In this document: positions 16,101 to 56,591 of the stretch, piece by piece | Layout: every line of letters starts with the position of its first letter | Position numbering within the stretch: the stretch's first letter is position 1 | Assembly: GCF_028372415.1 (NCBI RefSeq) | Contig: NC_092879.1 | Coordinates: 98,822,623-98,886,622 of the forward strand | Length of the DNA: 64,000 nucleotides | Source of the DNA: Notamacropus eugenii | Lineage: Eukaryota; Chordata; Mammalia; Diprotodontia; Macropodidae | Direction of reading: 5' to 3' | Notes under the pieces: model-generated | What the model was told of the DNA's origin: nothing | Database searches by the model: none | Seen by the model: only the letters and a program-made list of their open reading frames with translations | Position numbers and translations under genes: made by a program

Positions 16101-19100
16101 AGCATCTGGATCCAGGAAGGACTCAGAGGGAGGGAGGTCACAGCTCTGGTCATGGTAGATTCAATCAGCTTTGTTCCTCTTGACTACCAGGAAATTTTCC
16201 CAGTCTCAAACTACATGGTCAAGCAGCATGACATCAGCAAGGATATGAGAGCCATCTTAGTAGACTGGATGGTGGAGGTGCAGGTGAGTCTGGCAGCCTC
16301 TGACAGGGAGACCTGTGGGAAGAGGTTTCAGAGAGAGTGGTTCCTTGGTGCCCATCTTGGGAGGAACAGGTAGGTAGCAAGGCTGACCCGCCTCTGTAAA
16401 CACATTCTCTGCTCCTGTACCCCACGAAACCTATAGTCAGCGCCTTCCTTTCCAGGTTCCTTTCTTCACAAAAATGTCTGCTTGGGGCTTGGTGTCGTGA
16501 CTCCCCAGAAGATTTACCATTTCAGTAAGGAAGAGTGTTTGGGGGCTGGGGTCTTCCTCAGGCACCTGAAACCCATCTTGTCCAAACAGCGTTTTTGGCA
16601 GAAGGCCTCTGAGCTTTGAGTGATAGCTTTAGAGAATAATCCCTTCTTTTAGTGGAATTTGATGTTTTCTCATACATTCCCATTTGATCCTAGATAGTTT
16701 TGAACTAGAGAGCACAGTAGTTATTTCCAACTATGGATCTGGAAATGGAGGGTTAAAGGCTAACTTGCCCAAGGTTGTAATGATAGAACTAAAACTCCCT
16801 CGGTTCTCCTTGCCTCTGCACAGTGTCTTGTCGGGATTATTTTCCTAGTGCTGTCTTACTCCAATGCCTTATTGTGCCATAAGAGATGACCCTGAGTGCT
16901 TAAGTCTGTGGCAGATTCTCCTAAGCTGGGCCCACTGACAAACAGCCATGGTCTGTTTCTAAACCCAGAGAGCTTATTACTTGGTTGGTTGCATGGTAAT
17001 GAATTTTTTTAGCCACAGCAATTCTTCCTTGGTGTAGAAGACAGTTCTGCCCTCAAGGGACTTAAAATCTAATTAGAGATAAGATAGAAACAGACAAATT
17101 AAATAACAAGGCAACATGTAATTGTTGTAGAATTGGGGTATGTATGTGTGTGGAATTGTTGTGGCCCAAGGTGCCTGAACAAGTTTGGTTGAAGAGGTTA
17201 AGCCTTGAAGGGAAGAGCCTCCCTTAGAAGGCTAATCCTGTGGCCTGCTGGACCATGGCTGTAAATGGTGATATCATTGCCTTGTGGTAGGCCTCTGATG
17301 CTGGCAAGGTTAGGGTAAAATCCAGCATGGAATGTTCAGGGCTTCTTGGAATTGCCAGAAGCTGATGTCCCACACTCTTTTCTTATGGCCTGGAATTGCA
17401 GCTTCTCCCAGAAGGCTAAGGTGCCATTGGACTATGGACTGTGGGTTTTGTGACAGGGAGAAGCTGTGTCTTGTTCTTTCGCGCAACCTTTTCCCTTTTG
17501 TAGCACTGAGGTAAGTAACTATGGCACTTGGCTGAACACCTCCCAGGTACAGGCCTTTATGGAATCTCTTCGCTTGGGCTGGGTTCCTGGGAGGAGTCTC
17601 CTAGGAAAACGGCTGCCAATTTCTGCTCATTTTCCCAGCCTTTTTGTCCGAGAACTGTAGGCCTGTCTGAGTTCTGATTTGTAGCCAATGCCCTCTCTGG
17701 GTCTTATTGATGACATACTTTGAGTGTGTATTTACCAACTGGTAGCAGGAAGCAAAAAGCAGCTAGAAACAGCCTAGATGACAGAAGAGACCGTGTTGGA
17801 CTTAGATATGGAATATGTGTTCTCCTTTTTCAGGAGAACTTTGAGCTGACCCATGAGACCCTGTACTTGGCAGTGAAGTTGGTGGATCACTACTTGATGC
17901 AAGTGGTATGCTTGAGAGACAAGTTACAACTGATTGGATCCACTGCTATCCTGATTGCATCCAAATTTGAGGTGAGTCCCTGGGTGTGATTATACAACCT
18001 TGAGAGAAGCATCATGTGAACTATTTCTTATCTAGAAATAGAGAGGCCTGAATGCCTTCTTCACCTCTACCGAACTCTGTATGTGCCCTGCCCAGGAAAG
18101 GAACCTAGTGTTAAGCTGCTATAACTGAGTGTAGTAAGGGTTGGAATTTTCTCCATTTCCTGGGTATCCAACATCCTTCAAAATTCCCTTTGGTGGAGGT
18201 GCGAGGGGTAAGGGATGTATGTCATGTCACGTACAAGTAGGATGATTCCAATGTAGGCTTGCTGCCATCTCATATCTGTTCCCACATAGGACGTCAGGGG
18301 GTTTTACTACGGCCAGAGAAAATGTGCTTCAATCTGATGTGCTGGAGACTCTGTTTGCCTCTTGTTAACAGTGATGTGAAATAGTATAGATGAAATGAAA
18401 GTGACTTCAAAGAAATGGCATGTTATATTCCCTACCAGGGATAGCTTTTCCTTTCCCTTGGCCCCTTCTTGGTAACCAGAGTTCCCTTTTTCTCTCACGT
18501 TTTTTAGGTGGTCATTGAGTTTCTTGTCTTGTCCTTTTCTGACCTTTTCTTCGGCTAGGCATTAAGAAATTCTAGGGTTTTGGAATAACAACTAAGGCCT
18601 TATTCTGAGACCCTCAAAATGTGTTTGTTTCTAATGAGTCTTTCAGATCAATCAGTGGCTTTCAGAGTTGGCTGTGAAGGCCTGTGCCAAGAATTAGGGA
18701 TTTCTTCTATCCTCCCCCTCTCCTCATTCTTTTGAGCACCCTAGCCTAAGGGGATAGACACTATACTTGCTCCCATGTAACTCTTTTAACTTTGCCTTTA
18801 GGAACGCTGCCCACCCTGCATAGATGATTTCCTATATATCTGTGACGATGCTTATCAGCGAGAGGAGCTTCTCTCCATGGAAATCAGCATCCTCCACACC
18901 CTCAACTTTGACATTAACATTCCTATTGCCTATCGTTTCCTGCGCAGATTTGCCAAGGTGAGAGGAAGTCATTATAGGTCACATCGGCCTCTCTCTACCA
19001 TAGGTGGCTCTTTTAGCATGGGACGAAGCGAGGTTCTAAGATTAGGGGCAGCTTATTCATTCCCAATTCCCTAAGTCAGGACACGACAACATTTCAGGAG

Positions 19101-22100
19101 AGTGTCATAGGGCAGGGGGAGAGCTAGCTAGGTGACGCAGTGGATAGAGTCCAGTACCTGGAGTCAGGAAGACCTGAGTTCAAATGTACCCTCAGACACT
19201 TAGTAGCCATATAGCCCTGGACAAGTCATTTAATCTCTCTCTGGCTCAGTTTCCTTATCTGTTAAATGGAAAGAACACCTATCTCCCAGGGTTCTTGTAA
19301 GGATAAAATGAAAAAGCATTTCATAAACCTTAAAAGTGTTATATAAATACTGTTATTATTCAGAAGGCAGTATGAGTATGAGGAGACTGGAGAGAGGGGT
19401 GCAAGGTAGTACTTCTTTTGGGTAATTTTGCCCAGGGCCATTGCTAATCTGCAAGCCACCCTGTGCACCATGGCCTGGGAGGTACCTTTAGGTGACCAAA
19501 TGCCGATTCTAGGCAAGGAGAACTGACTCATGGGGACGGAATCTCAGCGACGTAAGGGATCTCGGAGGCTCTCCCCCTACAACATCCCTGCCTGTAGACC
19601 CCCCAATGAGGGGGAGCATTCCCCGCCCCTGACGAGGCCCAAGCCACTTTGGGACATTTCGATTGTTAGGGAGTTGCTCCTTTATTGAGCAAAGAGCTTC
19701 CTCTGCAATTTCTATCTCTTTGTCCTTCAGCATTTAAAGTATTTAAGTATTTCAAGACTACAAAAATGGTCTGTGCCACCCCCAGCTCCCTGCATCCCCT
19801 AATCTTGCCTTCTCAGTTTCTTCAAGCTTCCAATATCTTCCTGTGGCATGGTTTTGAGTCACCTCTTCATCATTTTCTTTTGGATATGCTCTATCTGATT
19901 ATTTCCTAAAGTGGGATACTCTCTCATTGACCCCATCTCTAGTGTGCCCACGTCAACATGGAGACTCTGACCTTGGCCAGGTTCATCTGTGAGTTGACTC
20001 TGCAGGAGTATGACTATGTCCAGGAGAGGGCCTCAAAGCTAGCTGCTAGCTGTTTCTTCTTGGCTCTCAAGATGAAGAATGTTGGAAAGTGGGTAAGCAT
20101 TTGGGTGGGAGCACAGGGTGGGCTACAGCCAAACAGACGTAGAGGGAATTACATTCTCAATATCTATCATCAAAAAGTCCACCACAAACCAGGAGCTGAT
20201 TGATGGGAGAAGACTCAGAAGATATTTCAAGTGGTCAGTCGACATGGTAATTGGAATATGTGCTGTTTTCTACAGGAGAGGCCTTTGGGGCACAGATTTA
20301 GGAGACTTGAACGTAGGGTAGGCAGTTTCCCTCAAATTCAGTGTCCCTGGTGTGGCTCAGGAAAGGTCCCATCCACCCCCTTGGGCTCACAAAGACTGCT
20401 CTGCTTCCTTACTCTAGACTCCCGCATTAGAACGTTACAGTGGATACCAGAGCACAGATCTCTTCTCCTTGGTCAAGAGACTCAACTTCCTGCTGACTTA
20501 CCAGCGCTATGACAAACTCAAGGCCGTGCGCACCAAGTACTCTCACAAGTAAGAGGCTGGGCTGTCTGTTGGGAAAAGGCTTTGGAGACCAAAAGGGGTA
20601 ACTTTTCTGGCTCATGTGAGGAGTGCTAATAGCTTCTGGCTTCCACATGTTATTCTTTTTGAACCTCCTTTTCTGATTTTAGCCAGTGGAGTAGACAATG
20701 AAGGGAGCTATGTACCACCCTCAAAGTTTGTCACCTGGGCCATAACTGTCTCCTTAAAAGGAACACAGTAAAAGCCTTCCTCTCTGCAAGTCTACCCGTA
20801 AGGGAAGACAAGGCTCATTGGGACCCCTTTATCCTTTAAAGATAACTTCCCAACGTTAATAAATAATCATTGAATCCTTCAACCAAAACAACTCTAGTTA
20901 ATTTGAGATGAAATGTTCTGTACCCTTAAGTTACCAATCTTTATGGAGAGGAAGGAGGGACATGTATTGTTTTTGGGAGTGGGGATCAAGATGAGTCATT
21001 GTAACTGACCTGTCTAGCAGTATTTTCATTTACATGTGTGTGTGCATGTGTGCTTACCAAGATTTTTTTTCTCCAATCAAGTTTCTCTCCTTATTCTGAT
21101 TACCTTGGTGTTTTTTCTTTGTCTCTGTCCCAAATGTTTGCATGTTGGAGGAGGAGGAGGAAAAGGAGGTGTAGTAGAAGTAGAAATAGTAATAAACAGC
21201 AGCTAACATTGGGCACTTCAAAGCTTTAAGGTTAGGAAGCACTCTTCCGTTATCAGTCATAAACATGAAGTGCCTACCTACCATGTGCTAGGCACTGTGC
21301 TCAGGTGCTTATTTGGTCCTCATAATAGACCTAGCCCCATTTTACAGATGAGGACAAATAAGATATCTCTCTTCTGTTCTTGAATTTTTAAATGATGGGA
21401 CCTTTCGTATGTAGGTTGAGGATCCCTTCGGAGCTTTAGCTCTAAATTAATTCTATTTTCTAGAAAACTTTTCTGGTCCAATAGGATGCTCTTCCCCACC
21501 TAGTCTGTGGTTTGTCATTCATTGAACACTGAGCAGGGGTGGGGGGGGGGAGTTGGGTCTAAATCTAATCTCTGATTGACTTTTTTTTACCCCCCTTTTT
21601 TTCTTTAACCAGAAAAGTCGTTGTGATTATCATTGTTCTTCACAGTCCCGTTTATTGTTTCTGTTGAGATGTGAAATCTTCGCTTCCTCAAAACTGTTTT
21701 TGTCAAGTTTTATACTGTAGCTCCTTGTATGTTGACTTTGGATAATAGGACTAAATCATTAAATTAATTGAGTGTTTTGGACTGGACCCAATTATGACCA
21801 GTCTGATTTCTTGACTCCTTTATTTTTATAACGAGTTTTGTAACTTACATCTCCATGTGTCCTTCATCCTTGGGTTTTTGGCTGGCGGTTCGACAGAAAT
21901 AACTTTATCCATCTGTTTCGTCCTCTGCTACTTCACTATTTGTCTTGATGATTAGTTTCTTTCCTGCCTCTTCTGAGTTTTCTTCTTATAAAACATTCTT
22001 CCCCTTGCCAACAGAGATGCGTTGGTGCTCTTTTTGTCAATGGCATGACCGTGCATTTCTCTCAGGTTGCAGCGAGAGCTAGCATTTTTAGGACTATGTC

Positions 22101-25757: not shown

Positions 25758-25763
25758 TTTATT
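25758..25763 (-). promoter_or_regulatory. Putative DGKK poly(A) signal
   Basis: TTTATT on the plus strand (AATAAA on the DGKK strand). Scanning by eye, it is the first canonical signal on that strand after the DGKK stop at 29851, which would give a 3' UTR of about 4.1 kb ending near 25740. Confidence 0.4.
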
Positions 25764-29850: not shown

Positions 29851-29925
29851 TCATAGGTTGTGGCTAATGTCTTTAATACCCTGAAGGATCTTCTTCACGT
29901 GACCAACCTTTCTGATTCCTAAATC
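29851..29925 (-). CDS. DGKK: DGKK final coding exon: SAM domain end and stop
   Basis: 24 codons plus TGA after acceptor CCCATAAAG. It encodes [20 protein letters not shown] then SHNL and completes the SAM fold (DGK delta: [20 protein letters not shown]). It is shorter after the SAM domain than DGK delta. Confidence 0.93.
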   Translation of the reverse strand, partial: DLGIRKVGHVKKILQGIKDISHNL

Positions 29926-32900
29926 CTTTATGGGGGAAAAGAGAAGAAGTTAGCTTGTTGATAGATACCCAATCACTTGGACCAGAGAAGAGGAAAATGA
30001 GAGAGTTAAGGGCACTGACGAGCTTGTGGCTTCCCCAACATGCCAAAGCCCCGTTGGTAGCAGCTGAGCCATCGGGATGATGATGAAAGTGCCTGGGATA
30101 AAACCTCTTCGGGCTGAGCTCTCTGATGTATGCTAGAAAGGGGTTCTCTACGTCTCACCATGGGTTGCCCAGCGTGCTCTCCACCTACCACCAGTTCTAT
30201 ACCGAAGAGTCAGAGGGAGGTCTGTTGCTTGTGGCAGAGGGAGAGGTAGCTGTTGTCAGTTCTGGGCAAGGGGTGAGGCAAGGAGCTATGAGGAGTCCTT
30301 AGGTGAGCCAGGAGAGGGACAATGGTCTTTGGATCAACAGTCCTTGTCCTTCTTGTCTCTGGTACAAGTCGTTTTTGTACTTTACCTGGAAGGAGGGCTG
30401 GCTCAGCTCAGTCCCAGGCCCCATGGCATCATGGGCTTGAGGCAGGCCTCAGTTCTGTGGAGCCATCTGTGCCAGGCTGCTTGTGAGGCCAGAGTTTGTC
30501 TGCCAGTGGGCACAGAGCAAGTATGCCCTTCAAGCCTCACTTCTGTTTGAGGCTCCACTTCATGTCTGAGTTTTTAAGGCCCAGGCTCCCATTATAATTC
30601 TCATGCCTTTGCCTCATGGGAGGCAAGAGGAGACTCCTGCAGCTCGTAAAAAGGGCTTAGCCTTGCTCACTGACTTGGGGGCTCCACCTGGTCCTTCAGT
30701 TTCCTCATATATATTGCCACTAGAGAGTATGTTTAAGATCCTTGGGTGAGAAATGGTTCATGGACAGAGGGAGGCCAAGAGTGGTTATGAGTGAGGCCAC
30801 CCTGATGAATGTTTAGCAGGTAAAAGCAGACGGAAGTGAAGAGCTCGCTACAAAGCACGGTAAGAACAAGAGGACAAGATTAGGGATCCTTGAGTAGGAG
30901 GTAAAGTTGTTGACAATAAGAATGCGCCCCCCCCCCCCCCCCCCCCCCCCAGGATAAAGGCCTTTGCTTGGGATGCGTCTCTGGGTCCTCTATGCATCGC
31001 TTTTCCCTTTCCCTTTTCCCTTTCCGTGACAGAATCAAGGGGCTGATGCCAAGGAGTCTCAGTGAGGAAGGAAGGGCAAAAGCAAAGTCAGCCTGGTCAG
31101 GGGGTCATGCCAGGGCCATGCCACTTGTGGGCAGTATGGATATCAATGGGGCAGCCATCCATCATTTCTGGAAAATAGGGGCATTTTGAATACCTTCAAG
31201 TCTCGTCTCTCCAGCAGGATCAGCTCTGAGCCCTGGATTTCATGGTGAATAAAAATGTCTTTGTACTCCCCTAAACCAAGTGCGTCCAGCCAAAAAGCCA
31301 CTTCCTCAGTGCCCCATCTGTCCACTAGCAAAAAGGAAAATGACAGATGACCACCTTATTGAGAACAGAGAGGAGGCCAAGAGCAACACGTGCAGAGTTA
31401 CGCAGAGAAAGAGAGAAACTGTAAGCGAAGCGCAGGCAGATTCAAAGGAGGAAATCGGGTCAGGGCCAGTTGGTAAGAGGTGCTGGTGGACAGCAGCGGT
31501 AGTAGCAGCAAGCTGAGAGAGGTTTCTTGAAGCATCGGAAACCAAGTCCTTGGGCCCTAGGATGGCCCGACTGATGGCTTGAGCTTGGTCTCACGGATGA
31601 GGGCATATTCAAAATAACCCCCCAATGACTTGACTCCTCGAGGAGAAAATGAAGCGGCTCTTCTCTTTTCTGCTTTGTGGTCCCTGATCCAGTGGTAAGC
31701 ACAGAGCAGGAGATCAGTATATGCTGATGGAATTGACTTGGACACCATCATCTGGATTTTTTTCTCCCTCTCACACCTTCAAGGTATGGATCCTGTCTCC
31801 CTCATAGGGCTGTCAGGGTTAAGGAGCAAAGCAGCAAACAAAGTGGCTCTAACAGAGGCTGGTGGCCTTGTGGGTGATACCAGAGGTAGGCTAGAGCAGG
31901 GTTCACTGCTTGGCCACTGCCTTGGTGGGATGTCAGGCAAGCTCTTGGGAGTTCAGGGCATGTAGTTCAGTCAGTGACTCCAGAATCCTGGGCCTGGGGA
32001 ATACGGTTGAGGGCCCAAGGCAAAGGAACTTCCTGGGCCCCACTTTCAAGCAGCTGCCCTAAACATGCTAAGGATATAGACTCTGTGATGCTGAAACTGT
32101 CTGGCCATCACTCAGGTGGATGAGTTTCTCCACAGACTTATTCAAAGAAATACTGCACTCCTTACTCTTCTACAGACACAAATCAGGAAGGGCCTGAGAA
32201 AACTGGCAGCCTTCTCCATAGCTGGCCATGCCCTGGAAGTCCCTGGGCCTGAATGTGGTGATCTGAGCACGTGTGTCTGGGGCTCTGGTCATTCTCTGGA
32301 TGACTGTCTGTAGTGTGTACCTTATTGGGAACTTTGCCTTCTAACGGTAATTCGGGGCTTGGCCCCCATCAGAGTCGATAACCTCAGGGTAAGAATATCA
32401 AGGATGACTTGTCCCAAAACCCAAATGCTGGCAGGAGAATGACATGGGTCCAGGCAGTAACAACACTGCCTCTGCTTCTGGGTCACGTCACATTTGCACA
32501 GCTGACGGTGGCTCTGAAGCATAGGGGTGGGGGTGAAGGTGGGAAGGGCAGCAGACAAGCAAATATATTTCAGAAGTGGCCATGCTGGGATTTGGGAACA
32601 GATGGGGAGACCCAGGAAAGGCAAAGAAGCAAGAGAAGTTCCCTCTCTTGTCCCTCCCAGCCTTCCCAGAGTAGGCCCAGGTCTAGAGGAATGCTTGGTC
32701 ATTTTTGTAGGGGGTAGAAAGGGATCCCTGCTGCTCCAGTGCTCAGGGATTCCCTAGCCCTCTCTCCCAACTGCCTGCAGTTAAAAGAACCAGTGGACCA
32801 ACCTTCCCTTGGGATTCCTGGCCAGTGAGCTGTATGAGACTCCATGGCCGTCTCGCCCTTGAATGGTGGGGTCAGAGAGAAAGTGGAGCAGAAGCTAAGG

Positions 32901-35900
32901 GACCCCTGTATTGCAGCCAGGCTTCCTCTGGTCCCCAGTGGCCCTTGGGTTTGTCTATCTTCTGGCCTAGCTTTAAACTATTTTGAAGGGAGACACTTGC
33001 TGAAATCCCAGCCTCCACACTTGCAGGCTGTGATAATCTATCAAAGAAAGCTGACCCAGTCATCGCTGGGTGATGAGCTCTGGGTTTAGTGAGGGGGGCA
33101 CCTCCCCAACCACCCACATCAGGGCTCAGAGAAGGCCTCTTCCTCTCTACACCCTGACCCAACCCCATCTATTTGCTTGGTTCTTGGTCCAGCCCACATG
33201 GCTATCAGTAAGGCAATGAGCACGAAAGCCTGGGAAGAGGAGAGGGGAAGAGAGAGACACAGTCAGACACACCCAATGAGAAAAGAGAGAGAGTAGAGAG
33301 GGAGAGGAGACTGGAAGGGAAGAGAAGGAGTGCCAGAGGGGGTTTCCTTAAAGTTTTAGGTTAGGCAGTCAACACTGTTCCTGTGTCTCACTGTTGCCAA
33401 CTAATGGAATCATACAGAATTGTAAAAAAGGCCCCTCAGGAGACTGGCTGGCCTAGAGGTAACCCCTGACCTCTCCCTTGCCAGGCTGGGCCCCTCAGCT
33501 TCTAGCCTCCTCACTTGATCTTTGCTCTTCCCTGCTCAGAAAACAGTAGCACAGACAAGCTCTGGCAAGACTGGTCCTGGGCTCTTAGCACTTGCCCTTC
33601 TCCACTTCCTGGGCAGTCCCAAAACAGGAAAAAAGGAGCTCAACTGAAGGGCAGCGACATGCTTTGAGTTCCTCGGGACGTGCTCCCTTTTGGGCTTTTT
33701 TGAAAGTAGATGTCTCTGGCAGGACTAGCAGCTCATCTTGCTCCCAGCACAGGAAGGAAGCCAGGCACACCTGGGAGTGGTATCTAAAGAAGGCTCTTGA
33801 GCCATACTTTGGCCTGAGAGGGAACCGCACTGGGTAGAGCAGAGAAATAACTGGTGGCTTTCTGAATAGATTTCTTCCAGTGGGCTGACAAGAATCAGCT
33901 CCAAGGGAAACCTGCCCTCCAGCCTCCGGTCCTCCTGAGGGAGCCAGAGGCAGAGGCAGAGGCTCCATGTTCTCGCCAGGATGGCTCCTTGTTTCATCTT
34001 GTCTCCACATGTTGGAGAAGAGCAAACAGTGACGGTGTCTTTTGGCTCCCTCCCAGCACCATGTGTCTCTGGAGCTCAGCCTGATGGGAAAATTAACTCA
34101 ACCCCTGTGACTGTGGGGAAGGGATTTACCTGAGACGGAGCTGCTCCACTTGACCTTGCGGGGCTTGCTTTTCTTTCCTCTGGAGATGTTTAGACGCAAC
34201 CTGAAGCTGCCTTTGCTAGTGTGTCCCAGGCTCTCCTGGGCCAGAGAAAAACACGTGTTAGCTTTTGTACTTTCCAAAGGGGCTGGCAGAGGCCTGGACC
34301 ACGGCCCACGGCCCCAAATGTGCTTACGTTCTAAGATGTGTTTCAGACGATCCTATAGTATAGATCTACAGATGGCTCAGAGGCCATTATCCAGTCCAAG
34401 TCCCTCATTCTATAGAGAGAGAAACTGAGACAGGCCTATGGAGATGATGTGACTTGCCCAGGGTTATACAAGTAGAGGCAAGACACTGGTCCATATCAGA
34501 GGGGCAGTCATAATCTCTGGCTATACTGCCAGATACACATCCCACCTTTGGCAATTTCTGCTGATCTTCCTACCAAGCGTCTCCCCCCAGCCCCATTTTA
34601 GGGGCTGCCTTTTGGTGGAAGTTGGTGAGAGGCTGCCTCATCCTTGGAGGGCCCTTCGCTGGGTCCTCCTTTAGATGAGGGTAGGCCTCCATGGAAGAAA
34701 CTGTCATGTGAATGAGTGTTGTTTGGGCAGCTTTGCCTCCCCTTTTACTGAGTCCATCTCTATTGGCAGAATAAGCACCAGGATAGTGGCGGGGGGCCGG
34801 GCACTATGGAGGAAAGACCAAGGCTCTTCCCAGGGCCTGCTGCTTTAGAACTAAGAGAAGGGAGCAAATGCTTCATCCAGGGACTCGGCCTGGGTGCCGG
34901 CAGCCACATTTCAGGGAGGATGTTGGCAAGCTGGGGTGCATCCAGAGGAGGCTAGGCATAGACCAGTGATGGTAAGTGGCAGAGCTGAGATTCAGCCTGG
35001 AGGCCTCTGGCCCTGAATGTAGCACTGTCAGCTAAGCCATGGGATAACTGTACCACATACAAGTCACTTGAAGGAACTGGGACATGAAGTCCAGAGCAGG
35101 GTCAGGGCTTGCCAGCAGCAAAGGTATTAGACCTGCTCTGCTTGGCCTTGGAGGGCAGAACCAGGAACAATGTTGGGGGAGGGGGCAGGAATGACAGGAA
35201 GTTGCAAGGAGGCAGATTTAGGCTGTCTGGAAGGAACAACTTCACTAGGAGAGCTTGCCTCGAGTGGGTGAGGGGGGGCTCACCATCAATGGTGGACTCC
35301 AAGTCAGAGCTGGGGGAATTTCCGAGAGGATTTTTGCTTAGGGATGGGTAGGTGACTTGAGAGCCTCAGAGGGAGGGCCACCAAATGAACGAAATGCGAC
35401 TATTTTCCAATTTTGTGACACAATTCTCCAAAAACACCAAGTGCCCATAACTGCCTCTACTCCTGCTACCCACACTTCTGTGCTCAGTACCCCCAGAGCT
35501 TGGATGAGGTCAGAGGACCAGGGTTGGGGCCAAAGAGGGAGTTTAGAAGCAGCTGGGACAGAGTGTGGCCAAAACAGCACCAGTGCTTTTCTCCCTCCTT
35601 TCCCCTCGCATCCAGGGGGCATCAGCCCCCAAGTCACATAGGGCCAGAAGAGCTAGGCTTCCCTCTACCCGAGTCCTTTCATCCAGGAAGGCCCTCTCTG
35701 CACAAGGCAACCCCCAGATCATGAGTGCTTACTGGCACATAGTAGGTGCTTAATCAATGTGGGTTGATTGATGAGAGCTACAGCCCTTGCTCTCCCTCCA
35801 CCCCAGCATCTGATGAATCAAGATAAAGGGAAGCCCCACAGCTTTCAGTCACTCTGTTCCTCCATGGTCCCTTCAAGAAGGCACTCACCTCTTCAGTGAC

Positions 35901-38900
35901 TGCATTGAGGATGGGTGCCATCCAATGGATTTCAGACACCTTCTCCAGCTCCTGGCTGACGTTGGCTAGGGCAACCTGCAGCCCCTCCTCGCGCCGGGGG
36001 CTGTCCAGCTGCTGTAGGGAGGGAAGGCACGCAGAATGAGCTCTGCTGCCATGCATCTCTGTTTCATGGCACACAAGTCCCTCCAGACCCAACTGGTCCC
36101 AGGTCCCTAGCCTGACCCTCTCCCACTAATGGGAGTCGTGGCATATTCTGGCCTCTAAATCCAGATCCGTAATGACTCCTCTGTCTGATCCCTGGGATCA
36201 TCTCATACTGAGAAGAGCCAAACTCTGGATGGCCAGCACAGCTGAGGAGTTTTGTGTTTCTGGAACTAACAAGTAGATAGAACAGATGAGCAGTGATGTC
36301 ACTGGCGTGAAGCCTGCCCACCCAGCCTCTTTCTTCTCCTTGGCATGGGACTCACTTTCAACTGGACCCCCAGGTGGGAAATCTACTGGTGCCACCCGCC
36401 ACAAACAGATGAGAGAGGCTGGCAGACTACTACATGGACGGGGGATTAGGAAAGTCGATAGCATAAGATGTCAGCACCTAAAATAGACTTGCAGGGATAG
36501 GCAGACCTGGAGGAGAGCCTTGGAGTTTTGTAGAAAGATAGTGAACTTAGCAGCCCTGGGGAAAAGATCCCCACGCAAAGCTGGAGGTGAAAGGAATCGA
36601 TCCAGGTGTGTCTGCCCTGGGAGGTGGCCCCCACACCCTCAGTCTCTCCATTTGTCCTGCAGTAGCCATACAGACATGGCAGCTACCCTGAGAGAAGTCC
36701 AGCATGCAGGGGTCAAGGAGGTGATGATAGTGCTCTCCATTGCCCCCACCCTCTTCCAGGTTTGGGGCCCCTGATTTAATGAACACAGATAAAAGCTGGA
36801 GGGCTCCCCACATGAGGAAGAGAAGACTTGGAGGTGGGGGAAGGGAATTGTGCTCATTGTCTTCAAGGGGGTCTTGGGGAGGAGGGACTAGCCTAGATTT
36901 GCTTGGCCCCCCAAGGCAGAACTAGGAGCTCTGAGAAGAAATTGTAGAGAGGCAGGTTCAGGTCAGATGTCAGGAAGAACTTGCTGACAATGTCAACCGC
37001 CCCCACTTCCTGAGCCTGGGCTGCCCCTGTCTGCAGGCTTCTGAGATCCTTCCCACCTTTCCTTCCCTTCTTTTGGATGCCAGGCCAGTCCTCAGCAAAA
37101 CTGGGGGGGGGTGGGGGAAAGCTAAGTTTGTCTGTGGCCCCTACCCCACTGTGGTTCTGCTCTAGGTCACACAATCTCTTTGGGCCTCAGTTTGCTTACC
37201 CTCTTGCCTTCCCATGACCTTTCATAGCTCTCCGCCTCTGATGCTCCCATGTTTTACTGTAGATACTGAATATTCAGACATGTGACTGTACTGCCTGGGG
37301 GCTCTAGGAGGACAGAGGCACATTGGAATGGACTCCAGCTTCCACTCTCCCCTGTGTGGGACTCCAAGAAGGCCCTGTGATGCTGCATTGTAAGAATCCT
37401 ACCAGTCACATGGCTAAGCCCTGGGTTTAGAGTCAGGAACCGTGCTTAAAGCCCAGCTCTGCTGACCTGCATGTCTTTCAGGGATGCTTCAGTTTCCCTT
37501 TTGTAAACGAGGGCCTCTGAGGTCCTTTTCAGCTCTGGAGCTAGGGAACTATAATTGTTGAAGATGGAATTTGAACCGTAACACGCTGGCCCTTGTCCCC
37601 CCTAATTGCTGCAGGTTACCCAATACTTGGGGGTAGATCCTGCTCCCCCCCTCCCCCATCCCTTGTACTCACCAACTTCCCTTCCACGTAAGCTCTGGCT
37701 TCGTTGTACAAGGCTTTCACGCTAATTGAAACTTCCACAGCTGAGTTTCTGCTCAGGCTCTGCAGGATGTAGAAGTGAAGAGAGAAGGAAAAGGGCAGTT
37801 AATATGATGAGTCTGGCTTCTAGATCTCAAGGAACAGAAGCGGCTGGCAGGACAACCAGGAAGTTGGGCCCTGATAGGACCCAATCTGGCCCTCCTCTTT
37901 TACTCCCTCCCAAGAAGGGGCTTTGTCCCGGGGTTACCTTTGGCATCAAGAGCCACATGGGAAGGGGAGCAAATCTGGGACCTAGGTTGCTGGCTCAGCT
38001 GACAAGGTAAGGGCCAATCTAGGCACTTGGGCTAAATGAGTGGAGGCCCAAGCATTCCCTTCCCTCTCCCCACAACAACCAAGCCATTTCTTACAGCTGG
38101 ATCCTCTGGGCTCCACCAGGGCTAGACATTGCTAGCCTATAGCATGGGAGTCGTTGGTTCCAGATGTGGCACTCTCTTTGGCATCATCTGGCCCAGCCCA
38201 GGAGTTATTTTTTTGAGCACTGAGGGCATCATTCAAGGCCTGCAAATGTGTCTCCAGTCCCTTGCAGACTTGGCAGTAGGCAGCGGCCCCAGCTGTTTCT
38301 GAGGCTGATGCTGGGCTCAGATTTTCAATCCTCAACACTTGAGTTGCTTGCCCTCTGCCCCCATCTGTGTGCCTGTGCTTGTGTGTGTACCTTCTTCCTT
38401 GCCCTCAACCAAGCCCCAGCCATTCCTCATCCCCACCTTACCTCAGGGCTGCTGCCACTGCGCTTGCTGGGTAGCACTTCAGTCAGGGCCGAGGCACAGC
38501 TGTTCACTGAGTGGGCCAACTCCTGCTCTATGGCCTTGTGGATCTTGGCTACCTCGCGGATCCTGCAACCAAGTCATGGGGAGGTGAGACAAGGTCTCAG
38601 TTTGGAGGCTAGAGATGACCTTGTCCTTGGGGTACATCATAACATGAGAAAGAAAGCGGGCCATGCTACACTCCTGAGAGAAGCCGTGGACAACTCTCAG
38701 CGACACCACGCTAGGCTAGCCACGCTGGCTGGGGCGGTGCCAGGCATCAGTGAGCTGCGTAAAAGGGCATGAGCTCCGGGGAAGTCACATCCTGAACCTT
38801 CATCACATTCAGAATGGTGTCACTGGGGCCCCCTTGGTCATGGCCGCAGCAGATCCAAGGTCAAGGATGCTGACGAGCAGCTTGGTTCAAGTTGTACAGT

Positions 38901-41900
38901 TCAGTTTTTGAGTAACCTGAGAAGCTTAAACTATAATTTAACACATTTCCCCTGGGATCTCCTTGGTACTGCTTCCTGGCCATGGGCCTGACCTGTAAAG
39001 GTGAAAAGCTATTGGGGTTGCATGGGGCACCCTGCTCTGGGAGGGGAGGGAGGAGGACAAGGCAGTGAGGGAGTCAAGCCCCTAGCCCTCTCCACTGGCC
39101 TGGATGTCCCCAGTTCAAGTAGCTGGACTGCCATCTACTTGACACCACCACTCAGACCTTGGCCACAAAAATTGGACAGGACAATCAGTGAAACCATGGT
39201 CTGGTCAGAAACTTGGATGGTTCCTACTGGGACTTGTTCTCCCAGAAGGTTGTACCTTGCCTTTCAAGGCCTGGACCTCATTGCTGTGCCCTGTGGAGAA
39301 GAGTGGCAAAGGTAGCCTCCTGGAATCTCCTCAGGAGAGAAGATCAGCCCTTGACCAAAGTGTCATAGCCCAGTGGGGAGGGGAAGCATTCAGCCATGCC
39401 CTGAGCTGCCTGCTCACAGGGCTAGCACCATCCCATCTAGGCAGTGGGGACATTTGGCACACACCTGTCCTCAGGGTCCCCCTTTTCTTTTTTTGTCCCA
39501 CATGCTGCCAGTGGGGCTTGAACTAAGAGTCCTACACACTCATCTCAGTGCTTCCCTGTGCTAGGTTCAGCCCAACAGGGGCCCTTCCCTTGTTCTCTTG
39601 GTTGGCGGTGGCTTAATGCTACTCTCCCTGGGTCCCTCAGGTTCTACTGGAGTGGGCACAAGGTTCCCGACTTTGCGGTAAGTCCTAGCCCAAAGGGTCC
39701 CCCGATTTATTATTTCTAAAAAGATCTAATCGAGGTGGGCACGAGGTTCTTGCCAAAGCAATACTCCCAGCCCAAAGGGTCCCCCAGTTTATAAGTCAGT
39801 CACAGGGTTGCTGGATTTTCCCTCTAAGGATGGTGACTATCCCCTAACAGGTGGCAGTCCTCTAGAATCAGACTTACTCAGGCAACTGATAGATGGGGTT
39901 GGGTGATTTTAATTCTAGCATTCTGGATACAGAGGCCAGTGGCTGATGGGCCTGGCCACAACGTTCTCCTTTGGCATCTACCAGTCACTGAGGGTCATCT
40001 CCCAGAAGTCCACTCCTGCTCATGCCCCACCACAGACAACAGCAAGCTTTAGGTGGGAGCCACGCAATTAAAATGCCAACCAAAAGTCAAGGGGGGAGTT
40101 CCCATTACCGAACCCGGGTTTGTCTTTCACTCTGAGGGGCAAGTTACCATAAAACCACCCTGCCATGTCAGATGTTCTGGGTTAGAGGGGACGATTTTCT
40201 GAGGCTGTCCCTTCCCCATCATTTAGTTGTAGCAAATGTTCTCAGAATGGGTGGTTATATGGTAAATCTGCCAGTGCGGCAGAGGAGTGAAAAGACAACC
40301 CACACACAAAACTTACGTATCCTAGTGAAGTTTTTTGAAGGATATAGGTACAGCCGGCCGGGTCTCAGATGCAGAATCGAGAACTAAGGACACAGGTGTT
40401 GTGGTGCTTCTAGGTGCTTCTAGAGGGGAGACTGTGTCCTTGTCCAGGCCTGAAGATCAAGTCTCACACCAACCATCCGTGCCACGCACGCGCCAGTATC
40501 CCAACATCAGGTCGTGACATGCAGCCGCACAAAAGGGGACTTCTGACTTTCCCCCTTGTACAGAGAAAAAGCTCCATCTCTGCCATGTGTTGGTGACACC
40601 TTGTTGGTTTCCCTGTGTCTTAGGGATTCAAGGGTAAGGACTGGCGGTGACGGGAGTGGCTGGACATGGAATTGGAATGCCTGACCCTTAGCTTTACTCC
40701 AAGCTTCTGACAGGGGTCTGGAAGACCCTTGTATCTGCACCTTCCCAGGGACTGAGGGGTAATGGAATGATGCCCCCTCTTGCCCAGATGGCTATGTTCT
40801 GCAGAACGTTTGGACTTTTTTTTGGACACAGAGAGGGGACCCTCTCGGCAGCTCAGGAATGTGAACAACAGCCAGAGAGGTACTGGGGCGCAAGCCAAAC
40901 CTTCGGGGGACAACTCCACAGAAAAGCAGGTAGAGAGAGTAGGGCCACTAAGCAAGAGAGTGCCCACCACAGCCATTCTCCCATCGGAACAGCTGGAATG
41001 ATAGGTGCTGGGTGGCATCTGTGAATGCAGCCCACATCTGGCAAGGGAGAGACTCCCCTGAATGGTGTGCAAATACTGGGCCTACAACAAGGAGCCTGTG
41101 CCTGGGGTTTTATTGATGCCAGGACCTTCCTGGTGTGGAAGTTCCCTCCACCAATGCAGGGTGGGGGGGACGATGACGACGACAGGGGAGCAGCTTTGAG
41201 AGAGTAGCCTACTGATACAGAGACCTGTGTATGTATGCATGTACATATGTATCTTCTAAGACCAAATAAGATGGGCATGTTTATATTCACAAAGACGGGA
41301 TGACAAGAGAGGTTGCCCAAATCCCAGCTAACAAAATATAACCATGTATATAATGGGATGAGGTGAAGCTGTCACAAATTCAGATGGCCAAGAGGGTTTC
41401 TCCAAACAAAGCCTAGTGAGAGTTAGGCTTGGGGGGCTGGAAAGGCCCAGAGAAGGAAGGGAGAGAGAGGAAGGGGGTCCTAATTTTCCACACTAGAAGG
41501 CAAAGAGTCACAGGGTATTCAGGACTGAAAGCAATCTTTGAGGTCCTCTAGGATCATGGGGACCCAGATGTGGAGCCTGCAGGGAGCACTGGCCTCCTCT
41601 TCTCACATACAAGAACATTCAGGCCCAAAGAGGGGGAAGGAACTTTGTTCATAGTTGCTGGGTCAATTAGTGGCCCAGCCAGGACTAGAACCCAGGTCTT
41701 GGGACTCCCAATTGAGTCTAGTTCCCTCCCCCTCAGTCCAGTCATTCATGCTGAGGGATGGCTGGGGCTTCCATGTGAAGACCAGGCTTCCCATGTGGCT
41801 TACCCTGCTCTCTCTCCCTCTCACCCCAGGGACTCTCACAGACTGTCCACTTCACCTGGTGATAAGGATGTCGGCGGAACGGGCAAAGCGCTGCAACAGC

Positions 41901-44126
41901 CTATATTCCTCTTCAGTGAGATATTCCATGGACTGCTGGGAGTTGAGCCGGGGTCGGGCTAATCTGTAGCTTTCTCCCTTCTGCTTATTTTCCCATGACT
42001 TGAGGGTACTCTCAAAGGCCTAGAGATGAGAACAGCAAAGAAGGGCAATCAAGAAAGGAGACGGTCCCTCCCTTGATGTCCGACCCCTCCCTGCCAAGCC
42101 CTGTGCCCTCCCGTCCTCCAGGAGCTACCACACTAACATCCTTGGGGAGGCACAGTGTCTGGCACGTAGTAGGTGCTCGCTAAATGCTAGATGATTGACA
42201 GGACAAAGGAGGCACTTGGTAAGTGCTGGCACTGAGGTAACAGTAGCCTGCTCGCCACTGCCCTTTCCCACACAAACAGGTCAGCAAATGGCTACACGTC
42301 TCCTTCAGCCTTGGAGGGTTTCACAGAAATTGTGATCAAATGTAAAGGTTGTTTTTCCTGTGTTAGAAGGGTGTGTGTGGGAGACCATTAGAAGCCTTTT
42401 GGATCCTTGGGTAGGGCTGAGGCTTGGCCTCTAGGTCTGCATGACAACCTAACTGAAAGTTCTCACCCGGTCTCTGGTCAGCATCTGGGCTCGGTTCTTA
42501 TGCTGAATCCTGATGATACCTGGGGGCTGGACCCAGGCCTCTCCATCCACTTGCACAGGGACCCCCTCATCACCACAGATGGTGATCTTGACCACACGGC
42601 ACTGGCAAAGGAATAAGGAGAGGTGAGAGGGGGACCCCTGGCTCAGAGCCTGTCAGTACTCACCAGCATAGCTCATATCTGAAGCAGGGTTAGGCCCCAA
42701 AAGTGCCACCTGGGTCAAGCTGGGAAACCTACTTCCTATTGGCCATCAGAAGCAAGGATGTCTCACAGGCCAAAGGCCTCCTAGCTCTAGGCTGGCAGGA
42801 AAACACAAATGGGGCCTCCACCTAGTGCCTGGCCCATATTAAGTGCTTACCTAATGCCTTAGCAGCCTAGTCCAGGGAACCCAGAGTTACCAGTCCCTGC
42901 CATTCGCTGCTTCATGCCTCACACCACCCTCATACATGAGTGTATAGGCCCATGGTCTAGTAAGTTCCATGGGGGCCTAGGCCTGGCCGCTAGGCTCCTG
43001 CTCAGCCCACTGCTGTCTACCTGGGCGATGCGGTGATGTTGAAGGTTGATAACTCGGGACACAGCCATCTGGATGCTGCCAAACACCGCCACCACCTCCA
43101 GCTTCTTGTCATCAAAGGAAGGTGCTCCAAAGTTCTGTATGGATACAATGGTGAGGTTGCTCACATCCTCTGACAGCCCGCCCAAAAGATGGGACTGGGA
43201 GCTGAGCCCTTCCGTTGGCCCCCTGCCAACCCCATCTCACTCAGGAGCCTTTGTCCTGTTGCTATCAGAGGCCTCTTCCCTAGGTGCTGCCTGATGGACA
43301 TGGGCTGGATAAGGGGGCTGCAGAGGTCCCTTGAAGTTAAGGAGAATCTAAGGAGTTGATTGAGAGGGATGTGGGGTTGCCATGTTTATCCATTTCCCTG
43401 GTGCCTGGCTGCTTGAGTGTGGTGTGTTCACTGGTGATGGGTGCAAGGTGATGAATTCCCTTTTTTCAAGCAGGTGGTGGGCCAGGCCTGGGCTTAGAAA
43501 GCTCCTAGGCCTCAGGTACTCAGCCTGCTTACTACAGTCCCAGCTCTGTCTGGGCCAATGGTCAGAGCCTACAATAGCCAGACTTTGGGCTTTGGAAGGC
43601 AGGCTTCTGTTCAGGTCAGCTTTCCCATCTGAGGGGCCTCTTTCCTTCTCCCCGTCACGGATGAAAGTCAACTTACATTATCTTCCTTGGTTCCACCCCA
43701 GAAGTTGATGCCTCCTGCATAGCTGGGGATGTTGAGCACAGCAATTCCCTGCAGACTAGGCAAGGTCATGATTTCACCATCACACTGGAAGAGCAAAGAA
43801 AAGACCTGGGGGGTAAATGACTGCTGGGAAGGGAAGCAGAGGATCAGAAGAAATCTATGTTAAAAAGGACCTTGAGGTCAAGGCAAAAACTGGGACCCAG
43901 AAATGGAAAGGGAGGCCATTCATTCTCCAAGGTCCCTGACAGCTCATGGGGCCTGTGTGACCTTAGGCAAGTCTCTCTCCCTCCAGGTTTCCTCTTCTAG
44001 CTATGAAACTTTGGGCAACTCACTTGACCACCCTTGGCTGGTGGTCAAATTTCCTTTTGTGGAAAATGAACAGGCTAGTCTAGGTGTTCACCAAGGTCCC
44101 TTCCAGCTCTTGGTCTAGGATCATCC

Positions 44127-44200
<74 letters not shown>

Positions 44201-47200
44201 ATGTATATCTATAGTCCTAAAGGTGATGGCCACCAGCTCTGTGAGGGTGAATGAGGAGGGTAGTGTGTCATGGTGGGAGAGGGGTTCAAGGAAGACCTGA
44301 AGTCTAGCTTGGGTGTCTAGCCTCAGACACCAGCTGTATGAGCCTCTTTGGACCCTTCACCTCACCTGTAAAATGAGGAGGCTGGACTCAATGGCTCCTA
44401 AGGTCTCTGTCTGCCCTAATGATCTAGGATCCTATGGTCTCCAAGGTTCCTTCTTTTATGTGGAATTCTGAGACAGTGCCAATATTTACCACAAGAGGGA
44501 GCAGTCCGGAAAAAAGAGCAGACTGTCACAGTGGGGCTTGGTAGGGCAAAGACAATGGAGAGAGCCTTGAATGTGGAGCCAAACCCTGGCCTCAGTCTCC
44601 TCCTCTCTAAGATGGCCCTTGTCAGCCTCTTCTGGTCCAGCTCATTCCCAAGGCATTTGGTATCAACAATGGCCAAGGTCTGGTCCAATCGGTACCCTGG
44701 AAGGGGAGGGTGAAGGGTTGATGGGCTGATTCAGAGGGTCTTTCATCTACTTACCTCAAGCTGCACACGCTGCTCCAGGTTCTTGTAGGTGCGTTGCAGA
44801 AGTTCCTTTGTTCCCAGCACCCCGTACCACATCATGTTCTTGGTGCGGCTGCTGTGGGTGGCAGAGGGGAGAGGAAAGGCAATGAGGCCAGAGAACAGAG
44901 GAGGAAGGGTAGCAGTGAGAGAAGGCAGTAGGAGACCAGCAAATCCCTCCTAGGCTCATTCCTGATCACAAGCGGCTGCCACTGCCATTTTTTTTCATCT
45001 CTATGCTGAACTTGTCAAGAGAACGGAGAGATCTGGGGAGTTACTACACAGTCAAGACAGGTTTGCCTAGGTACCAGCCAGATCCCCTCTGGCCCTAACA
45101 TTTCAGGACTTCAGCACATGGGGAAATGAACAAGAAAGGTCCAAGCAGACACACAGGGGCAAGGGTGGGGATAAGCGGCCCCCTAAGATTTGTAGGTGGT
45201 GGAGATATGTGGGGCTGTTACCACTGGTGGCCACTGCACTCATGGCACGTTGGAGCCAATTTCAGAGCCAGGGTGGAATCGGGTTTTTGTTGTGGTTGTT
45301 TAATCTAGCCAGTCCCTGGAACGAGGATCTAGGAGTCCCCCAAAGGTCAGTGAGTGGTTTTCTACAAGCTGCGTGTGACTGGGACAGAAGCAGGCACCTC
45401 AGCCACTGCATTGCAGACACAGTGCTGTCTTTCCCAGCTCTGCTCCCTACATGGCTCTGGGAAAATGGCCTTCCTTGTTTCTGAGCACTGCCCAGGTACT
45501 TGTCTAGAAAGTGGGAGTCTGACATAATCCATGGACACCCAAGCTCGAGCTATATGTTGAGCTATCCTCTGGGAAAGGAAGAGGCAAGATAAGCCAGAGA
45601 GGTGATGGAGTCAGGGCAGACCCCCCAAGACTGACAGCCATGCCTAGAAACCTAGATCTCACTGTCTACAAGACTGGCTGAAGGAACTGGAGGTGCTGTC
45701 GGGAGGAGAGCAGCTTCAGGGGGATGCAGTGATTGTCTTCAGTATGGAAGGGGCATTAGCCTTGTTCTGCTTTGGCCCAGAGAGCAAGAGAACCTAGAAG
45801 ATTCAGAGAATCAGCTGGAGGCTTGGGGGGGGGGGACAAAAAGTTGTGCACAATTAGAGCTTTCCCACAATGGGACATGGCGGGGTGGGGATGGGTGGTT
45901 CCTCTTCAAGGGAGGTCTTCCAGCTGACCGACCATGAACAGGGCACAGTACTATGTGACCAGGAGGGCCCTCCAGGATCCATCTGGGCAAGATGCTAAGC
46001 AACGGGGTGTGGGGTGCCTCTCTTCTTCATACCTGCATTTCTTGGGGTGTTCATCCCTTTTGTTGTTAAACTCCAGAGAAATCTTTGCATCCAGGCCAAT
46101 GCCAAAATAGTTGTTCATGACACATTTTTCAGAGAATTGGCTAAAATCAACAGATGAGAAGAGGGTGGAGATGAGCATGGGGATAGTCGAGTGGGAAGCT
46201 ATCGCCACCATCACCCTCACAACCAGCCCCGGAGATCAGACCCCAAGAACAAGTCAGAGGGAGTACGTAGCTCCAGGCAGTAGCCCTAACCTAAGGCTGG
46301 AGTCCTAACTGGAAATCCTGCTCAAAAGATGCCCTCGTCACCCGAAGGAGGCAATGAGCCTGGGAGAAGCAGAGACAGGTGGGTTTGGAGTCCCAGGCTC
46401 ACCACTTGCTACCCATGGGCCTCTCTAAGATCAGGGGGTTGGAGGAGAGAGCATTTCAGGTGACTCTTGGGTGTGAGGGGCTAGTGTAATCCTCCCCATG
46501 GACTCCAGGCTGGAATTCTTGTTCTCAGATGACAAGGCTGTAGGGAGTGGGGCTCACTGGGCCCACTAGATGGGCAGACTTTCTTCTGAACCCCATGAGG
46601 AAGCCGTAACATATTCAAACATGCATCTGGGGACAATTATGGAGAGGTGGAGTCCTGAAGAAGGCTGTAAAGCAGACAGATCTCTGGGTCCCCAGCCTCG
46701 TACTATACACATATGCATGTGAATCTGCCCACACTACAGCCTGGGTTTCAACTACTGGATGCCTGTGTGGCTTATGGTAAGTCACTTCACCTTTAGGGTA
46801 CTCAGTTTCCCCATTTGTAAAATGAGGGAGCCAGCCTCAAAGAGCTCTAAGGTCCTTTTCCACCTACAAGTCAACGTTCCCCCTGTCAGCATATGCTGAG
46901 AGCAGTATCTTCATTTGGTTTTCTCCTTAGTCCATTCGTTCTACATCTTCTAGGGCAGAATTGGAGGCCTCCCTTGGCCACTGCCCAAACTGACCTCTGT
47001 GATGGCTGGAAAGGCCATGAGAATGGCACAGGAGGGAGGCAAGGGTGGATGAGTGATGGAGTTGGGCATGAAGCCTCCCTGCCCATGGCACCCCGTAGCC
47101 TGTCCAGCCTCTGACAACCACCCTCACTTGTGTGTGATGTCACCGGAGGATGACCAGACCCATACTTACATGGTGACGGGCTCCTCAGCAAAGTTGCTTG

Positions 47201-56200: not shown

Positions 56201-56556
56201 GGGGAAGAAAGAAAAAGGTAGAGAGAGAGAGAAGGAGATACTGATGGGTGGAGTGAGGAAAAGAAAGAGAAAAGAGAGTCAAAGAGAGAAACAGTTGGAA
56301 GGAAAATGAGGCAGAGATGGGAGGGACAGAAAGAAAAGGCAGAAGGACAGGAAAAGAGGATGGGGGAGAGAGACAGAGGGAGAGAGAATGTAGAAGAGAA
56401 AAGAGAAGAGTTGAGAGAGGTAAGGACAGAAGGAGGGAGAGGGTAAAAGGGAGAGACAAAAAAGGAGAAGGAGGAAGAGAGAGCAGAGTGTTAGAGACAG
56501 AGTTAAGGAAAGGCAGAGGGATAGACAGAGAGAGAAGGACAGATAGAGAAAACAGT

Positions 56557-56591
<35 letters not shown>

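What the first reader, a model, noticed from the sequence alone, without database searches (positions are those of the whole stretch)
29851..31324. Marsupial DGKK ends in a clear SAM domain
Two exons (31194-31324, 29851-29925) encode a C-terminal SAM domain very close to that of DGK delta ([33 protein letters not shown]). Human DGK kappa is usually described as the type II isozyme without a SAM domain, with a C-terminal segment of about 70 residues that targets it to the plasma membrane. If this is DGKK, the SAM is ancestral. The human membrane-targeting tail could then be a derived SAM at the same position, or the SAM was lost in placentals. DGK delta SAM polymerises, so the ancestral kappa may have oligomerised too.
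Basis: partly seen in the sequence, partly recalled or inferred. Interest (0 to 1): 0.75.

Follow-up and report, generated by a model that had tools for sequence, protein, structure and literature searches.

The report
Marsupial DGK-kappa keeps its SAM domain
A marsupial copy of the lipid-signalling enzyme DGK kappa still carries an oligomerising domain (SAM) at its tail that the human enzyme is described as lacking, which suggests that the domain was lost on the way to placental mammals and may explain why human DGK kappa sits permanently at the cell membrane.

Summary
Two exons (31324-31194, 131 nt; 29925-29851, ending in TGA) encode a complete SAM domain (Pfam SAM_2 E=1.2e-17; 43 of 65 residues identical to the solved DGK delta SAM). 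They end a type II diacylglycerol kinase gene, of which 19 exons were placed.

The gene is DGKK by descent: it lies tail to tail with CCNB3, and a four-sequence tree, using human sequences recalled from memory, groups it with human kappa (AU p about 0.0014 against each alternative). A short CCNB3 and SINEs fit a marsupial.

The 131-nt SAM exon has the size of the DGKH exon whose skipping makes SAM-less eta1. So the therian kappa ancestor probably had this SAM, and placentals lost it.

The human tail (recalled) shows no trace of a degenerate or frame-shifted SAM, so that alternative is unsupported. Best mechanism: as in DGK delta, the SAM oligomerises and holds the enzyme off the plasma membrane; its loss could explain why human kappa is constitutively membrane-bound. 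That step is inferred. A modest, testable variant of a known enzyme.

The parts
31194..31324 (-). SAM-1 exon, 131 nt: first 43 residues of the SAM domain (DRWGTEEVA...RRDLK)
   Evidence: Pfam SAM_2 E=6.8e-10 on the exon reading frame; AG/GT borders and phase
29851..29925 (-). SAM-2 exon with stop TGA: end of the SAM domain ([24 protein letters not shown])
   Evidence: spliced model; alignment to 3bq7 through query position 66
34130..34232 (-). C-4 exon: strongly basic linker before the SAM (10 K/R, 1 D/E in 35 residues counted with the optional leading E); tandem acceptor CAGGAG, start 34232 or 34235
35889..36011 (-). C-3 exon, region between kinase and SAM (ends ...[16 protein letters not shown])
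   Evidence: within or next to the DGKD_4H Pfam match
37673..37759 (-). C-2 exon ([29 protein letters not shown])
38442..38562 (-). C-1 exon
41856..42019 (-). acc-6 exon
42467..42601 (-). acc-5 exon, DAGK accessory domain
43021..43134 (-). acc-4 exon, DAGK accessory domain
43677..43784 (-). acc-3 exon, DAGK accessory domain
44755..44851 (-). acc-2 exon, DAGK accessory domain
46033..46140 (-). acc-1 exon, start of DAGK accessory domain
49265..49553 (-). variable linker exon between the two halves of the kinase domain
   Evidence: neighbouring linker exons not located
50756..50813 (-). linker exon beginning (R)WSV
51568..51707 (-). cat-3 exon, DAGK catalytic domain ([14 protein letters not shown])
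52441..52549 (-). cat-2 exon, DAGK catalytic domain (GGDGSVGW)
53436..53598 (-). cat-1 exon, start of DAGK catalytic domain
62948..63050 (-). second exon of the C1 domain nearest the kinase domain
63766..63891 (-). first exon of that C1 domain; upstream exons (PH domain, other C1, N-terminus) would lie beyond the window end
8961..20546 (+). CCNB3 (cyclin B3) exons, tail to tail with the kinase gene; synteny evidence
   Evidence: Cyclin_N/Cyclin_C; 138/204 identical to recalled human CCNB3 against 79/194 to recalled CCNB1; N-terminal pieces matched to recalled CCNB3 by eye

Best explanation
The window holds the marsupial orthologue of DGKK, and it keeps the C-terminal SAM domain that type II diacylglycerol kinases inherited from their common ancestor. 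Shown: the two SAM exons are intact, in phase, bounded by AG/GT, in a gene next to a cyclin B3 gene, and closest in the PDB to DGK delta SAM. Inferred: the kappa gene of the common ancestor of marsupials and placentals had this SAM exon pair, and the placental lineage lost it and acquired an unrelated tail. Inferred by homology: the SAM makes head-to-tail oligomers like DGK delta SAM, sequestering the kinase in the cytosol until stimulation. Without the SAM, the basic segment just before it (kept in both lineages) and a new C-terminal PDZ motif would leave human kappa constitutively at the plasma membrane.
For: SAM: Pfam 1.2e-17; 3bq7 E=1.1e-24. Gene identity: CCNB3 tail to tail (that human DGKK neighbours CCNB3 is recalled); quartet tree window+kappa against delta+eta, alternatives AU p 0.00144 and 0.00145; informative sites 10 for window+kappa, 3 and 3 for the other splits. 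Human kappa is the longest branch (0.97) and the window gene the shortest (0.19), so long-branch attraction would not be expected to join them. Exon homology: SAM-1 is 131 nt; the DGKH exon 29 that makes eta2 is 1094-963 = 131 bp in mouse RT-PCR (PMC5028035 passages). Interface: SMSr residues L62, G63, K66, chosen because the matching residues are critical in DGK delta (PMC5264588 section 5), fall by the alignment end-points on V, G, K of KVGHVK in the window (position match inferred). Literature: SAM polymers keep DGK delta off the plasma membrane, and interface substitutions make it constitutively membrane-bound (PMC5264588 passages). [quoted passage not shown] Basic exon C-4: 10 K/R, 1 D/E in 35.
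Against: Human DGKD, DGKH, DGKK and CCNB3 sequences were recalled, not fetched; no vertebrate sequence collection was on hand apart from the PDB. Only one non-placental gene was seen, so loss in placentals is judged by parsimony with delta and eta. [quoted passage not shown]). The SAM-1 donor (AAG|GTATTC, 6 of 9 consensus positions) is one of the three weakest of 18 scored, so the exon could be skipped often. Identity of the window gene to human kappa is low (206/379), lower than to eta (250/372) or delta (235/375); only the fast human branch reconciles this. PH domain and N-terminal repeats lie outside the window. Oligomerisation is untested.
Confidence: 0.72

Rival explanations
1. The SAM-1 exon is an alternatively spliced cassette in marsupial kappa, as in DGK eta, so the gene makes both a SAM form and a SAM-less form ending in [17 protein letters not shown]. 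The placental state is then fixation of a SAM-less form rather than a wholly new state.
For: SAM-1 has the exact 131-nt size of the eta cassette. Skipping it reads 17 residues to a stop, the length of the eta1 tail I recall; that recalled tail is a perfect frame-shifted reading of the recalled eta SAM end (50 of 50 positions; 0 of 2000 shuffles, best shuffle 46). Weak donor.
Against: No RNA evidence. The recalled human kappa tail is not such a frame-shifted reading (38 to 40 of 60 positions for three assumed starts, below the shuffle means of 41.5 to 41.8).
Confidence: 0.35
2. The human kappa tail is a degenerate SAM at the same position.
For: The tail follows the same basic exon, by alignment of the recalled sequence.
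Against: Recalled tail against window SAM: 4108 of 5000 shuffles score as well, 4054 without the shared start. In-frame codon compatibility with the last SAM exon: 1655 and 1715 of 2000 shuffles as good for two assumed starts, 205 of 2000 for the third. The tail after the basic exon is only some 30 residues, half a SAM (recalled).
Confidence: 0.05
3. The gene is DGKH or DGKD, or a fourth type II paralogue, that happens to lie beside CCNB3.
For: Raw identity is higher to eta (250/372) and delta (235/375) than to kappa (206/379).
Against: Tree and informative sites group it with kappa. CCNB3 neighbour. Human DGKD and DGKH lie on autosomes beside other genes (recalled).
Confidence: 0.05
4. The SAM exons are relics: present but no longer spliced in.
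For: Weak donor at SAM-1. The neutral simulation leaves 17% intact at 0.05 substitutions per site, so a recent loss of use would not show.
Against: Open frame, kept AG/GT borders, 43/65 identity to DGK delta SAM with the KVGH.K motif kept; 5 of 4000 runs intact at 0.2 and 0 of 4000 at 0.3.
Confidence: 0.06

Closest known systems
DGK eta2 (DGKH) and its SAM cassette exon 29
   Same: Type II kinase, C-terminal SAM from a 131-nt exon plus a last exon; 49/68 SAM residues identical to the recalled human sequence
   Different: Different gene by synteny and tree; the window C-terminus ISHNL has no S/T at the class I PDZ position -2
DGK delta SAM (PDB 3bq7)
   Same: Best match among solved structures, E=1.1e-24, 43/65 identical; KVGH.K motif kept
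   Different: Paralogue; polymerisation shown there, not here
Human/mouse DGK kappa (DGKK)
   Same: CCNB3 neighbour (human order recalled), tree position, residues shared with recalled human kappa such as GGINFW, SLEFN, LSRN.AV
   Different: Placental kappa is described as SAM-less with a C-terminal PDZ motif (passages); the marsupial gene ends in a SAM
SMSr SAM domain
   Same: Same kind of oligomerising SAM, residues L62/G63/K66 matched
   Different: N-terminal SAM of a membrane enzyme; weaker sequence match (8ijr E=0.0002)

Membership tests
Type II diacylglycerol kinase | split catalytic domain (DAGK_cat + DAGK_acc) | tested here: met
   PF00781 6.2e-27, PF00609 1.3e-51
Type II diacylglycerol kinase | helical domain after the kinase (Pfam DGKD_4H) | tested here: met
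   PF22944 6.6e-35
Type II diacylglycerol kinase | N-terminal PH domain | not testable with these tools
   upstream of 64000, outside the window; own-genome search unreachable
DGKK gene by descent | position tail to tail with CCNB3 | tested here: met
   cyclin domains, B3 type (recalled references); human gene order recalled
DGKK gene by descent | groups with human kappa in a tree | tested here: met
   with recalled human sequences, four sequences only
DGK kappa isozyme as described from human and mouse | no SAM domain | tested here: not met
   SAM present; hence filed as DGKK by descent, not as the SAM-less isozyme
DGK kappa isozyme as described from human and mouse | N-terminal EPAP repeats | not testable with these tools
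   outside the window
DGK kappa isozyme as described from human and mouse | C-terminal type I PDZ-binding motif | tested here: not met
   SAM form ends ISHNL, H at position -2; motif rule recalled
SAM domain | profile match over the whole domain | tested here: met
   SAM_2 positions 1-65 of 66
DGK delta-type polymerising SAM | interface residues (V/L, G, K of the .GH.K stretch) | tested here: met
   KVGHVK present; residue match inferred from alignment end-points
DGK delta-type polymerising SAM | head-to-tail polymer in solution | not testable with these tools
   needs protein
DGK eta-type SAM cassette | 131-nt exon, frame-changing when skipped | tested here: met
   131 nt against 1094-963 bp in DGKH; skip frame ends after 17 residues
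DGK eta-type SAM cassette | alternative splicing of that exon | not testable with these tools
   no RNA data

The most novel reading that the evidence does not exclude
Placental DGK kappa became a constitutively membrane-bound isozyme by losing a SAM exon pair that marsupials keep. Losing the oligomerising domain removed cytosolic sequestration, unmasked the ancestral basic segment before it, and a newly acquired tail added a PDZ motif. The change parallels, in evolution, what interface mutations do to DGK delta in the laboratory and what exon 29 skipping does in DGK eta.
Probability: 0.35. Interest if true: 0.6.

Novelty: new variant of a known kind. Interest (0 to 1): 0.43.

Why it matters
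Reviews describe DGK kappa as the type II isozyme without a SAM and with constitutive plasma-membrane location (passages). If its marsupial orthologue has the SAM, that description is of a derived placental state. DGKK mRNA is a main FMRP target, and the enzyme has been tried in gene therapy of a fragile X mouse model (PMC9081908 passages), so how its location came to be unregulated is of practical interest. The comparison gives a natural experiment, one gene with and without SAM, that can be tested in cultured cells.

Tried and rejected
Degenerate-SAM origin of the human tail: recalled tail against the window SAM and against the skip frame by local alignment, no better than shuffles (4108 and 2176 of 5000 as good; 4054 and 1957 without the shared start; a global alignment to the skip frame, 700 of 3000). 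Frame-shifted SAM exon as origin of the kappa tail: 38 to 40 of 60 positions in the skip frame, below the shuffle means (no indels allowed).

Tail as an alternative exon still present in the marsupial gene: protein-level search of 34300-26000 on the gene strand had a best score of 35 at 31966-31805, between C-4 and SAM-1, then 30 and 30. It is chance: 107 of 400 shuffled tails do as well over the same region, and 3 of 6 other equal-length minus-strand stretches reach 38. A search with the tail back-translated into degenerate DNA found nothing that stands out (best 17.0 against 16.7 for the next; 20.2 for a longer piece at an unrelated place). In that search the eta SAM end, as positive control, found the right exon at 53.5, but the recalled eta1 tail did NOT find it (best 19.5 elsewhere), so the DNA test has low power for such short tails.

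A recalled 13-base marsupial SINE head, with 2 mismatches, gave 3 matches, not above chance (16 of 100 shuffles had as many); the longer SINE fragments were used instead. Relic or pseudogene reading: not favoured. Solved type II kinase accessory domains as references: none (0 hits at E 0.001). PDB match of the recalled kappa tail: none (0 hits at E 1). Rfam on the window: 0 hits.

Full report
What is there. On the minus strand a type II diacylglycerol kinase gene runs from beyond the window end (64000) down to a stop codon at 29853-29851. I placed 19 exons. They cover one C1 domain (E=9.1e-10), the catalytic domain (6.2e-27), the accessory domain (1.3e-51), the DGKD_4H helical domain (6.6e-35) and, last, a SAM domain (SAM_2 1.2e-17). 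All 19 acceptors end in AG and all 18 donors begin with GT, the twelve exons from 46140 to 29851 join in one open frame, and the kinase motifs GGDGSVGW and [14 protein letters not shown] are intact, so this does not look like a pseudogene. One or more linker exons between 50756 and 46140 were not found. The first AATAAA on the gene strand after the stop is at 25763, about 4.1 kb downstream; the DGKk 3'UTR is given as 3.8 kb in a figure legend (PMC9081908 passage).

Which gene. Downstream, tail to tail on the plus strand, lie exons of a cyclin (Cyclin_N and Cyclin_C). It is of B3 type: 138 of 204 residues identical to human CCNB3 as I recall it, against 79 of 194 to CCNB1. Among solved structures cyclin B1 and A2 are nearest, and none of the 60 shown of 64 is named B3. 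Human DGKK lies tail to tail with CCNB3 at Xp11.22 (recalled). A four-sequence comparison over the 408 alignment columns before the SAM, with human DGKD, DGKH and DGKK recalled from memory, gives 10 sites for window+kappa, 3 for window+delta and 3 for window+eta. The two other trees are rejected by AU tests, p 0.00144 and 0.00145. The accessory half alone rejects both (0.0096, 0.0063); the C-terminal half only weakly (AU 0.035 each, KH and SH 0.0508). The raw identities run the other way (eta 250/372, delta 235/375, kappa 206/379) because human kappa sits on a very long branch (0.97 against 0.19 for the window gene). The recall was spot-checked: my DGKD SAM agrees with 3bq7 at 64 of 65 positions, and my eta1 tail fits the recalled eta SAM end in the shifted frame at 50 of 50 positions. 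The recalled DGKK sequence itself could not be checked.

Which animal. The CCNB3 here shows no giant exon: the longest stop-free stretch touching 8900-21000 on its strand is 228 codons. Placental mammals are reported to have an abrupt three-fold enlargement of one exon (Lozano 2012, seen only as a cited title, and as a sentence in PMC11811201 that contrasts mammals with non-mammals). SINE copies at 7.6, 15.4 and 19.1 kb match a recalled MIR at 72-76% and a recalled marsupial SINE fragment at 74-77%; the head of the latter is matched only at 15.4 and 19.1 kb. A short SINE-head motif on its own was not above chance. The window gene also lacks 62 changes that are unique to recalled human kappa among the four. 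Together this fits a marsupial; no tool named the species.

The SAM exon and eta. In DGKH, inclusion of exon 29 gives eta2 with SAM and skipping gives eta1 without; the two RT-PCR products in mouse testis work differ by 1094-963 = 131 bp (PMC5028035 passages). SAM-1 here is 131 nt. Skipping it in the window gene would shift the frame of the last exon and read [17 protein letters not shown] before a stop: 17 residues, the same length as the eta1 tail I recall. So kappa has, in this animal, the same SAM exon arrangement as eta. The SAM-1 donor scores 6 of 9 against the consensus, level with two other donors as the weakest of 18. That leaves room for skipping; RNA data are needed.

The human tail. 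Passages in PMC12673472, PMC4308931, PMC5028035 and PMC11643042 say kappa lacks a SAM; PMC7554708 loosely gives all type II enzymes one. [quoted passage not shown] The tail as I recall it does not resemble the SAM or the skip frame and does not fit the last SAM exon in any frame without indels (best case 205 of 2000 shuffles as good). It was not found between 34300 and 26000: the best protein-level match, score 35 at 31966-31805, is chance (107 of 400 shuffles as good), and the DNA-level test was shown by one of its own controls to have low power. The recalled 70-residue membrane-targeting segment spans two parts: one homologous to exon C-4, which in the marsupial is strongly basic (10 K/R, 1 D/E in 35), and about 30 residues of unknown origin. 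Hence the targeting segment is not simply a SAM at the same position.

How it probably works. DGK delta SAM forms head-to-tail helical oligomers that keep the enzyme in the cytosol; interface substitutions put it constitutively at the plasma membrane (PMC5264588 passages and section 5). The residues named there as critical, through the SMSr alignment, match V, G and K of KVGHVK in the window SAM (position match inferred from the end-points). I therefore expect marsupial kappa to oligomerise, perhaps also with delta and eta2, and to be released to the membrane on stimulation. Losing the SAM would leave a basic segment free to hold the kinase at the membrane, which is how human kappa is described. 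The first half (SAM present and delta-like in sequence) is shown; oligomerisation, regulation and the causal link to the human location are inference.

What is new. Searches for DGKK or DGK kappa with SAM, marsupial, opossum, CCNB3, PDZ, evolution or other terms (20, 20, 11, 20, 0, 5, 8 and 10 papers listed) showed me no paper that reports a SAM in a kappa orthologue, apart from the loose sentence of PMC7554708. I saw listings, and passages of seven papers on DGKs. In the listings every listed paper had zero occurrences of DGKK. The library holds only part of the literature, and automatic genome annotation may well already show the domain. The presence of SAM in delta and eta2 made an ancestral SAM likely, so a specialist would be interested rather than astonished. 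Rated a new variant of a known kind, interest 0.43.

Noticed in passing
8961-20546 (+): CCNB3 with a short middle exon (coding stretch at about 12.25-12.41 kb) and no sign of the giant placental exon; a useful non-placental comparison for cyclin B3.
   Followed up: partly
54400-56900: About 2.5 kb of almost pure pyrimidine (on the minus strand) low-complexity sequence in the intron between the C1 and catalytic exons, giving spurious frames of up to 460 codons; the adjoining 53.9-54.4 kb is purine-rich on that strand. A pyrimidine-rich tract also fills about 1-900 on the plus strand.
   Followed up: no
30927-30950: Run of 24 G (minus strand) in the intron between the two SAM exons.
   Followed up: no
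34233-34238: Tandem acceptor CAGGAG at exon C-4, which could add or drop one residue (TEE[E]SLGH).
   Followed up: no
29925-29873 in the shifted frame: If SAM-1 is skipped the last exon reads a 17-residue tail; the recalled DGK eta1 tail is a perfect frame-shifted reading of the recalled eta SAM end (50 of 50 positions), so one exon may encode two tails of conserved length in two frames.
   Followed up: partly
49265-46140 and 50756-49553: Linker exons between the two halves of the kinase domain could not be found; the phases require at least one between 49265 and 46140.
   Followed up: partly
7592-7795, 15392-15632, 19126-19311: MIR-type SINE copies; those at 15.4 and 19.1 kb carry a marsupial-like head (CTAGGTGACGCAGTGGATAGAG at 19.1 kb), used as a lead to the animal group.
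   Followed up: partly
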